Assembly (NCBI RefSeq): GCF_017815135.1
Contig: NZ_JAGJCF010000028.1
Location: 1 to 35,437, forward strand
DNA: 35,437 bases
From: Jiella mangrovi
Lineage (GTDB): Bacteria > Pseudomonadota > Alphaproteobacteria > Rhizobiales > Rhizobiaceae
Reading direction: 5' to 3'
The stretch's first letter is position 1. Each line of letters opens with the position of its first letter. Positions 5,998-8,900 of this stretch are shown piece after piece. A program made the position numbers and the translations under genes. Under the pieces are notes generated by a model that did not search any database, was not told the origin of the DNA, and was given only the letters and a program-made list of their open reading frames with translations.

Positions 5998-8900
5998 TCA
6001 GCCGCCATAGCCACCCGGCGTCGGCGTCGTGACGATCACCGCCTCGCCGGCGGCAAGCACCGTCTGGTCGCAGCCGGCGAGTTCTTCCAGCGAACCGTCG
6101 AGACGCCGCACCTCGGTCCGCCCCATCTCGCCGGCCTCACCGCCGGAGATGCCCTTGGGCGGCAGGGTGCGGTGGGAGGACAGGATCGCGCAGTCCATTT
6201 CCTTGAGGAAGCGGATCGTCCGCTTCGTGCCGTCGCCACCACGCTTTTCGCCGCCGCCGCCCGAACCCTCGCGGATGTGGAAGTCCTCGAGCACGACGGG
6301 ATAACGCATTTCGAGGATCTCCGGGTCGGTGAGCCGCGAGTTGGTCATGTGGACATGGACGCCCGAGGTGCCGGCAAAGCCGGTGCCGTCGTTCATCCGG
6401 CCGGCCGGCGAGCCCGAGCAGATGGTCTCGTAATACTGATAGCGCTCGTCGCCGAAGGTCAGGTTGTTCATCGTCCCCTCCGAATTGGCCAGCGCCTCGA
6501 AGGCGCCGAACAGCGCATTGGTGACGTGCTGGGACGTCTCGACGTTTCCGGCGACGACGGCCGCCGGATATTGCGGCTTCAGCATCGAGCCTTCCGGCAC
6601 GACGATGGTCACCGGCCTGAGGCAGCCGGTATTCATCGGGATCGGCTTTTCCACCATCACCCGGAAGACGTAGAGCACGGCCGCGCGTGTCACCGGCTCG
6701 GGGGCGTTGAAGTTGTTCTCGACGGAGGGCGAGGTGCCGGTGAAATCGACGACCGCCTGGCGCTTGTCCCTGTCGATCGAGATCTTCACCTTGATCACCT
6801 GGCCGGTATCGGTCGGATAGTCGTAGGTGCAGTCGTCGAGGGTGGCGATCAGCTCGCGCACCGCTTCGGCCGCATTGTCCTGAACGAAATTCATATAGGC
6901 CTGGACGGTGTCGAGGCCGAAGGTCTCGACCATCCGGCGAAGCTCGGCGACGCCCTTCTCGTTGGCCGCGATCTGCGCCTTCAGGTCGGCGACGTTCTGG
7001 TCCGGATTGCGGGCCGGATACTGGTGGTCGGTGAGGACGCGGCGAAGCTCGTCCTCCTGAAACTCGCCCTCGTCGACGAGCTTCAGATTGTCGATCAGAA
7101 CGCCCTCCTCGTCCACCTTCGTCGCCCGCGGCGTCATCGATCCCGGCGCGATGCCGCCGACATCGGCATGGTGGCCGCGCGAGGCGACGTAGAAGAGGAT
7201 GCGGGGCTCGCCGCGCGTCTCGTTCCCCTCGCCCTTCGAGGCCGCCTGCGGCGGCACCTCAGGATGAGGGGAACCGCTTTCGCCGGCGCGATCCTCTCCC
7301 CGATGTCGGGCGCCGCCGTCTCCCGATCCCTCATCCTGAGGTGCCCGGTCGCCCTCGGGCGGGCGGGCCTCGAAGGGCGAGGGATCGCGCGCACCCTCCT
7401 CGAACACCGGCGTCACCACCGTGATGTCCGGCAGATGCGTTCCGCCATTATACGGCGCGTTGAGGGCGAAGACGTCGCCGGGGCGGATCCGGCCTTCGTT
7501 CTGGGCGATGATCGCCTCGACCGAGCGGTCCATGGAACCCAGATGCACCGGCATGTGCGGGGCATTGGCGACGAGCGCACCCTTGGCGTCGAAGACCGCG
7601 CAGGAAAAGTCCAGCCGCTCCTTGATGTTGACCGAGGACGCGGTGTTCTGCAGCGTCACGCCCATCTGCTCGGCGATCGACATGAAGAGGTTGTTGAAGA
7701 CCTCCAAGAGCACCGGATCGGCGCCCTTGCCTTCCTCGCCACCGGAGGTGCCGAGGGCGGCAAGCCGGGGCTTTGCCTCGACGCGCTTCATGAGAACGTC
7801 GTTGTCGCCGGTCGTCTCGGCCGCCCAGCCGGGCTCGACGACGATGGTCTGGTTCGGCTCGACAATCAGCGCCGGGCCCTTGACCCTGGCGCCGGGGCCG
7901 AAATTCTCCCGCCGGATGATCGCCGCGTCGCGCGCCTCGCCATCGGTGAAGAAGCGGCCGGTCTCGGCATTGTCGGCCTCGAAGGGCTGCGCCTCGCCGG
8001 TCTCGCCCTCGGCGGTCTCCTTCGGCTTCTCCGAGGTCTCGACCGACACGGTCTCGACGGTGATCGCCCGGCCCGGATAGACGAAGCCGAACTGCGCCTT
8101 GTGCGCCGCTTCAAAGCCCTCGCGAGCCTTTTCCAGCGCGCCGTCATAGGCCACCGGCAAGGTGGTGTCGGTGCCGTCATAGCGAAGCTGCAGGAGGATC
8201 TCGGTGTCGTGGCCGCCCGGCGCGACGCCCTGCGCCTCGACCTCGGCCGTCGTTTCCTTCGACAAACGCTCGGCCAGCGCCTCGATCTCGGCTTTCGCCT
8301 CGTCCGAGAGGTTGGCGACGAGAGCCTGCGACCGGCTGGAAAACAGCGAGGACAGGCCGATGCCGTAGGCCGACAAGAGCCCCGACATCGGATGAACGAG
8401 AACGCTTTCCATCGACAGGCTGTCGGCGACGAGACAGGCATGCTGGCCGCCGGCGCCGCCGAAGGAATTGAGCAGGTATTTCGAGACGTCGTAGCCGCGC
8501 TGCACCGAGATCTTCTTGATGGCGTTGGCCATGTTCTCGACCGCGATGGTGAGGAACCCCTCGGCGATCGCTTCCGGCGAGCGCCCGTCGCCAAGCTCTC
8601 TCGCCAGCGCCTCGAACTTCTCGCGCACCACGGCGACGTCGAGCGGCTGGTCCTGGTTCGGCCCGAAGACCGCCGGGAAGAGCTCCGGCTTCAGCTTGCC
8701 GACCATGACATTGGCGTCGGTGACGGTCAGCGGCCCGCCCTTGCCATAGGCGGCCGGGCCGGGATTGGCGCCGGCCGAGGCGGGCCCGACCTGAAAGCGG
8801 CCCTGATCGACCGACAGGATCGAGCCGCCGCCGGCCGCGACCGTGTGGATGCGCAGCATCGGCGCCCGGATCCGGACACCGGCGACCTCCGAATCCAGCG

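What the first reader, a model, noticed from the sequence alone, without database searches (positions are those of the whole stretch)
7226..7383. Palindromic repeat inserted in frame into the 5-oxoprolinase gene
A 158-base palindrome (18-base inner and about 15-base outer arm matches, each arm also self-pairing) lies inside the coding region and the frame stays open. It encodes a Pro/Glu/Gly/Arg-rich stretch placed directly before the conserved [13 protein letters not shown] segment, probably a surface loop. In-frame palindromic elements within genes are well described in Rickettsia (RPE); a case in a free-living alphaproteobacterium's metabolic enzyme would be a parallel. It could mean the repeat family can create new protein segments.
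Basis: partly seen in the sequence, partly recalled or inferred. Interest (0 to 1): 0.72.

Follow-up and report, generated by a model that had tools for sequence, protein, structure and literature searches.

The report
Mobile palindromes fill one enzyme loop
A short repeated DNA palindrome sits inside the gene for an intact-looking metabolic enzyme without breaking it, and related bacteria carry other palindromes in the same loop of that enzyme, so one protein loop seems to act as a repeated docking place for small genomic repeats.

Summary
Window 7226-7383 is an imperfect palindrome (18-bp outer and 18-bp inner exact arm pairs) inside an open fused 5-oxoprolinase gene (5998-9885, minus strand). 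It belongs to a repeat family with 45 exact arms in this genome. The same element lies in frame at the same site in three sister species; four lack it; two carry a different palindromic family there. On the gene tree these states need at least 5 changes. In the wider family survey at least 16 of 178 genomes with the gene have loops of 36 residues or more (usual: 8). Of 25 distinct loops that long, 18 fold more stably than every same-length window tested in their own gene. They fall into five groups unlinked by blastn; inserts tested against their own genomes have further, partly shorter, copies there. The insert is predicted disordered at a beta-hairpin turn. An IleRS loop varies in the same way within the genus. 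Intragenic palindromes are known (RPE-like); recurrent capture by one loop is the new part. Translation and enzyme activity are untested.

The parts
5998..9885 (-). fused 5-oxoprolinase (hydantoinase A + B type) gene, 1295 aa
   Evidence: open frame and four Pfam domains
7195..7401 (-). expanded loop (69 aa, residues 829-897); usual length in relatives is 8 aa
7226..7383 (.). palindromic repeat element (here called family A) inserted in frame
7226..7243 (.). outer arm, exact 18-bp inverted match to 7366-7383
7366..7383 (.). outer arm, partner of 7226-7243
7253..7270 (.). inner arm, exact 18-bp inverted match to 7328-7345
7328..7345 (.). inner arm, partner of 7253-7270
7233..7269 (-). 37-nt repeat arm; identical 37-nt copies at three other places of the genome, but a different inner segment in the three orthologous inserts
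7329..7376 (+). 48-nt repeat arm (longer inner segment)
7402..7428 (-). predicted beta strand before the insert (residues 820-828)
7171..7200 (-). predicted beta strand after the insert (residues 896-905), start of the ASRGHHAD segment
11012..11183 (.). another palindromic element of the window; matches inserts found in this same 5-oxoprolinase loop in other genomes (46 nt at 98% to L280, 59 nt at 92% to L286)

Best explanation
A small dispersed palindromic element (two inverted 37-50-nt arms, no gene of its own) inserted into the turn of a beta-hairpin of 5-oxoprolinase. Such elements are often stop-free in at least one frame, and the insert keeps the gene in frame, so the enzyme gained a disordered, hydrophilic loop and survived. 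The hairpin turn is permissive: over time different palindromic families, and some non-palindromic repeats, have landed there in many lineages, decayed by in-frame internal deletion, been partly rewritten and been lost. Shown: identity as a dispersed repeat, in-frame position, orthologues with, without and with a different element, relaxed constraint. Predicted: disorder of the insert. Inferred: how the element moves, surface exposure in the native complex, decay by internal deletion, and a near-neutral effect on the enzyme.
For: Dispersed family: 45 exact arms in own genome, 0 for the reversed pattern. Same site with A, with B and empty in sisters. Other inserts there: B in G003 and G006, G131, G248, Aminobacter sp. 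HY435, and 12 further genomes with loops of 36 aa or more in the family survey, 9 of them palindromic by the test. In all, 18 of 25 distinct loops of at least 36 aa fold better than all same-length windows tested in their own gene (4 of the 18 are A orthologues and 2 are B). 23 of 188 records have a single insert of at least 28 aa at 820-835 against 4 at all other interior sites together (the sample is partly enriched for long loops here). pLDDT is under 50 at construct residues 125-177, between two confident strands. Pooled pN/pS is about 0.63 in the insert and 0.20 in the rest of the gene. An IleRS loop of the genus varies in the same way.
Against: No expression or activity data. 7 of 25 long loops are not more stable than their gene's other windows, so the loop also grows by other means. 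No mobiliser is known: only RAYT (PF01797) was searched, and it is present in G000 (with an internal stop) and G006 but not in the other 8 genomes, 3 of which carry this insert. Target-site duplication was not tested. The loop-reading scripts could find only open loops, so broken genes would have been missed by them.
Confidence: 0.8

Rival explanations
1. DNA-level targeting: the palindromic elements (or the enzyme that moves them) prefer this DNA site, and protein tolerance is secondary.
For: Several groups of elements at one place; the flanking residues are strongly conserved, so a shared DNA target is conceivable.
Against: Different families are unlikely to share one target; by alignment the insertion point varies over residues 824-830, though gap placement is uncertain; non-palindromic repeats also expand the same turn; a loop of a second enzyme (IleRS) shows the same.
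Confidence: 0.12
2. Adaptive use: the added disordered, charged loop is useful (for example partner binding, solubility or regulation), so insertions at this site are selected.
For: The insert is open in 4 species and its dS is mostly close to that of the rest of the gene, so it is old; parts of the peptide are kept (SPHPEV..ASKGEG).
Against: dN/dS 0.3-1.1 in the insert against 0.13-0.18 in the rest; at least 5 state changes on the gene tree; inserts of different groups share no detectable sequence.
Confidence: 0.12
3. Loop alleles move between species by short-tract homologous recombination, so much of the pattern within the genus is exchange of a few old insertions rather than many insertions.
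For: Carriers of A and of B are not clades on the gene tree (AU p 5e-60 and 1e-4; A also rejected within 450 nt of the loop, p 3e-4); both flanks are conserved and could recombine. The B loops of G003 and G006 are closer to each other (about 89%) than the near-full-length dispersed copies are to the G003 insert (at most 84%).
Against: Insert dS between A carriers is mostly like that of the whole gene, so no recent transfer among most of them; outside the genus several other groups occur, so further insertions are needed anyway.
Confidence: 0.3
4. Artefact: misassembly or a pseudogene.
For: Repeats can break assemblies; the gene of G298 is split over two contigs at this loop and that of G456 is split too.
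Against: Full-length open frame in 4 genomes with the same insert and in many genomes with other inserts; domains intact.
Confidence: 0.01

Closest known systems
Rickettsia palindromic elements (RPE; Ogata et al. 2000, 2002: recalled, and as cited in passages of PMC2229807 and PMC10969869)
   Same: Palindromic element of roughly 105-150 bp, dispersed, both between genes and in frame inside conserved protein genes
   Different: Other lineage (genus of Jiella); no sequence comparison with RPE made; here one loop of one enzyme is filled again and again by different groups of elements
Intragenic GTAG/CGTC REPs (Di Nocera group 2013, PMC3733652; passages and section 15 read)
   Same: REPs and REP dimers within ORFs in several bacteria, including DNA repair genes; different REPs at about the same site of recB in two Xanthomonas species
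   Different: The element was not compared with those families; here the recurrence spans many genera, five groups unlinked by blastn and two enzymes
REP/BIME/REPIN with RAYT transposases (recalled; PMC2817692 seen only in a search listing)
   Same: Inverted palindromic units forming one larger hairpin, many copies per genome
   Different: No intact RAYT found in own genome or in the three sister carriers
Bacterial MITEs with ORFs (ERIC, Correia; passages of PMC2229807 and PMC10969869)
   Same: Short repeats without a transposase gene, fused in frame with host genes
   Different: Neither terminal repeats of a parent insertion sequence nor a target duplication were looked for here

Membership tests
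RPE-like protein-coding palindromes | palindromic element of about 105-150 bp | tested here: met
   158 bp, 18+18 bp exact arms, fold z about -8
RPE-like protein-coding palindromes | dispersed copies, some of them in frame in conserved genes | tested here: met
   28 clusters found in the window and 28 loci of own genome; 3 (OPLAH, IleRS, UvrB; in UvrB a single arm) lie in frame in genes with Pfam support; the other 25 were not annotated further
RPE-like protein-coding palindromes | sequence match to a Rickettsia RPE family | not tested
   no RPE sequence was compared; Rfam gathering search of the window gave 0 hits
RPE-like protein-coding palindromes | insert is translated and the protein active | not testable with these tools
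   needs proteomics and assay
REP/REPIN mobilised by RAYT | cognate intact Y1 transposase in the genome | tested here: not met
   PF01797: own genome 1 match with an internal TGA; none in G009, G007, G005
REP/REPIN mobilised by RAYT | short palindromic unit repeated in inverted pairs | tested here: met
   17 of 28 clusters hold two or more arms by a strict pattern, 11 a single arm
MITE | terminal inverted repeats of a parent insertion sequence and target-site duplication | not tested
   no IS search and no TSD analysis was made
Fused 5-oxoprolinase (HyuA-HyuB) | both hydantoinase A and B domains in one chain | tested here: met
   fold match of the HyuB half to 9h03_A and 6yra_B

The most novel reading that the evidence does not exclude
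The beta-hairpin turn of 5-oxoprolinase (and a loop of IleRS) is a true exchange site: different families of mobile palindromes are repeatedly inserted, rewritten by gene conversion from dispersed copies, pared down to single hairpins and replaced, so that protein-compatible reading frames have become part of how these repeats persist, and the repeats act as a standing supply of disordered linkers for housekeeping enzymes across many genera of bacteria.
Probability: 0.25. Interest if true: 0.8.

Novelty: new variant of a known kind. Interest (0 to 1): 0.62.

Why it matters
In-frame palindromes are known mainly from Rickettsia and as scattered intragenic REPs. Here one loop of one enzyme gives natural replicates: the same gene empty, with element A, with element B, with short hairpins and with other groups. 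That makes two old questions testable: whether such inserts are neutral passengers or useful, and how small repeats without a transposase enter and leave coding genes without breaking them.

Tried and rejected
Considered and rejected: read error or pseudogene (same insert open in four genomes); slippage as the general cause (inserts match dispersed repeats); a RAYT-driven REPIN; a known structured RNA (Rfam 0 hits).

Led nowhere: the plasmid search gave 24 records, all Rhizobium; the 20 printed matched about 43 nt of the query, i.e. one arm. Repeat words in papers gave 41 papers, and the 30 listed look unrelated by title and abstract. A first regular expression was wrong and found no loop in 110 loci; corrected.

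Limits and counts against a neat story. Of 10 long ORFs tested that run through an element in own genome, 8 have no Pfam family (two more ORFs of at least 170 codons were not tested), so such ORFs are probably mostly spurious. In one search, G323 and G421 gave only 45% identical paralogues and G456 is split over contigs; none was counted as a long loop. In one search, G062, G127 and G228 scored low without a long loop being read and G242 was a paralogue. Genomes with full-length matches were judged by match length and mostly not read. Seven genomes and 16 with weaker matches had no printed row and were not examined. G131's insert also matches dispersed repeats of Aminobacter and of G255, so the five blastn groups need not be five wholly unrelated families; the broad CTCCCCC group is single linkage and may hold more than one. 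Aminobacter's own insert was not searched in its genome. Records are distinct sequences, not independent events.

Full report
What is there. The window is contig C19 of a 4.93-Mb genome. ORF 5998-9885 on the minus strand encodes a 1295-residue fused 5-oxoprolinase with HyuA and HyuB domains. Window 7226-7383 holds exact inverted arms of 18 bp (outer) and 18 bp (inner), and the stretch folds better than all 200 dinucleotide shuffles, as DNA and as RNA.

It is a dispersed repeat. A pattern for one arm finds 45 exact copies in this genome (21 forward, 24 reverse) and none for the reversed control pattern; G009 has 54, G007 28, G005 24, G004 14 and the other five genomes of the genus 1 to 6. I scanned the window and 28 loci taken around the blastn hits with a strict arm pattern and found 28 clusters: 17 with two or three arms, 11 with one; neighbouring inverted arms are 35 to 136 nt apart outside the window. 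Three clusters are in frame in genes with Pfam support: this one, IleRS (L010:1325-4813) and UvrB (L027:167-3559, one arm). Eight other ORFs tested that run through elements, one of them antisense to IleRS, had no Pfam family. Of 17 two-arm copies outside the window (the IleRS one included), 13 are stop-free in at least one of six frames, so the element is often readable by accident. RAYT (PF01797), the only mobiliser searched for, is present in G000 with an internal stop and in G006, not in the other 8 genomes, so I cannot name what moves it.

Sister species. Among the 10 genomes of the genus, G000, G009, G007 and G005 carry this element (A) in the same loop, G003 and G006 carry another palindrome (B), and G001, G002, G004 and G008 have the short loop, e.g. 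DDAKDHIL. G001's gene without loop is identical to that of Jiella pelagia HL-NP1, so the genus is taken as that of Jiella. B has matches in 8 of 10 genomes of the genus. A and B inserts do not match each other. On the gene tree without the loop the states need at least 5 changes, and neither the A carriers (AU p 5e-60) nor the B carriers (p 1e-4) form a clade; with 450 nt on each side of the loop alone, A is still rejected as a clade (p 3e-4). Insert dS between A carriers is 0.18 (G000-G009) to 0.45, against 0.39-0.48 for the rest of the gene, so A is mostly as old as the split of these species; dN is about three times that of the rest. The simplest reading is an early insertion with later losses and a replacement, with recombination between species as an alternative. 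The 37-nt arm in this genome has an inner segment found unchanged in three other arms of this genome, where the three orthologous inserts have another. This looks like rewriting from dispersed copies, which is inference.

Wider survey. With an insert-free query, 175 of 297 order genomes and 178 of 247 family genomes match at E 1e-40 or better. In the family survey at least 16 of 178 have loops of 36 aa or more: G000, G006, G013 and, after re-search of 18 low-scoring genomes, G356, G396, G400, G405, G413, G427, G430, G442 (Aminobacter), G443, G503, G528, G530, G533. In the order survey 6 of 175 were read in full (G000, G037, G039, G131, G248, G292); a seventh, G298, runs open to the contig end in a repeat-like stretch that I did not fold. 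I read 188 distinct loop records in all; 136 are 8 aa long. This set is partly enriched for long loops, because low-scoring or longer matches were sought out, and partly depleted, because best matches to an insert-free query were also taken.

Are the inserts palindromes? Of 40 distinct loops of at least 17 aa, 21 fold more stably than every one of the 23-89 same-length windows tested in their own gene. Among the 25 of at least 36 aa it is 18; the 7 others are L283, L288, L063, L048, L183, L290 and L044. By blastn (1e-5, 25 nt), the long palindromic loops fall into A (4 loops), a broad CTCCCCC group including B (single linkage), an Aminobacter-type group, and G131 and G248 alone. Against their own genomes, B has 6 and 5 matches in G003 and G006, G131's insert 11, mostly of about 55 nt or less, and G248's 52, many over nearly the full length; these figures include the insert itself, and a palindrome can count on both strands. 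The palindrome at window 11012-11183 belongs to the broad group (46 nt at 98% to L280, 59 nt at 92% to L286). In one genus (g223) G530 has a 75-aa palindromic loop and G475 a 21-aa single hairpin with matching ends, as an internal deletion would leave.

Why this loop. The model of the HyuB half (41 sequences, mean pLDDT 80.0) puts the insert between two confident strands, with pLDDT under 50 for construct residues 125-177. In the sequence alignment to a solved N-methylhydantoinase the same place is a short turn. Single inserts of at least 28 aa occur at 820-835 in 23 of 188 records and at all other interior sites together in 4 (L071, L063, L171, L120; 159-185 records cover those sites; two N-terminal extensions at residues 21-22 are left out). 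Smaller inserts cluster at 240-265, 565-595 and 605-660, some of them repeat-like. Protein tolerance explains this better than a DNA target, because the elements differ and the exact point seems to vary. The model is a single chain; exposure in the native complex is not shown.

A second enzyme. At one IleRS loop of the genus G000, G009 and G007 carry A, G005 carries an ISPLAGEM-type repeat, G003 a short ISPSRGEIG stretch, G008 a 49-aa and G001, G004 and G006 19-24-aa loops; G002 was not read there. Another loop was read only in G000, G003 and G005 and carries repeat-like stretches in all three. Apart from the G000 copy of A, found by its DNA, these IleRS stretches were judged by eye from their peptides, not folded.

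Known or new. Passages of PMC2229807 and PMC10969869 and section 15 of PMC3733652 show that in-frame palindromes are known in Rickettsia, enterobacteria and other bacteria, with one same-site case (recB in two Xanthomonas species). The primary RPE papers are recalled or cited second hand; Ogata 2002 is not held. My searches listed no report that I could see on palindromes in 5-oxoprolinase or on repeated capture by one loop, but I read listings, not all papers, and the library lacks most subscription journals. I therefore file it as a new variant of a known kind.

Noticed in passing
window 11012-11183: Palindrome with 44-nt arms (93% complementary), about 1.1 kb from this gene, of the same broad group as inserts found in the 5-oxoprolinase loop of other genomes.
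   Followed up: partly
window 15305-15410 and 25229-25268: Another palindromic stretch: 32-nt inverted arms at 15305-15336/15373-15404 (94%), with a 40-nt inverted match (88%) of 15371-15410 at 25229-25268.
   Followed up: no
L010:1325-4813 (own genome IleRS): Isoleucyl-tRNA synthetase carries the same element in frame plus another repeat-like stretch in a second loop; the first loop varies between species of the genus.
   Followed up: partly
L027:167-3559 (own genome UvrB): UvrB has one element arm in frame behind its UVR motif; REPs in uvrA and uvrB genes are also described in PMC3733652.
   Followed up: partly
window 1-306, 3995-4300, 26281-26580, 34523-34828: Four related repeats (61-97% identical over 300 nt), two of them at the two ends of the contig; the assembly probably breaks in similar gene copies.
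   Followed up: no
L278, L291, L312, L069, L243, L178, L044: A separate short repeat type coding SAEG-like peptides expands the same loop in several genera, once as three copies (L044); it is not more stable than the rest of the gene.
   Followed up: partly
L235 (own genome C3:83276-83602): The only Y1 transposase (RAYT-type domain) match of the genome has an internal TGA.
   Followed up: no
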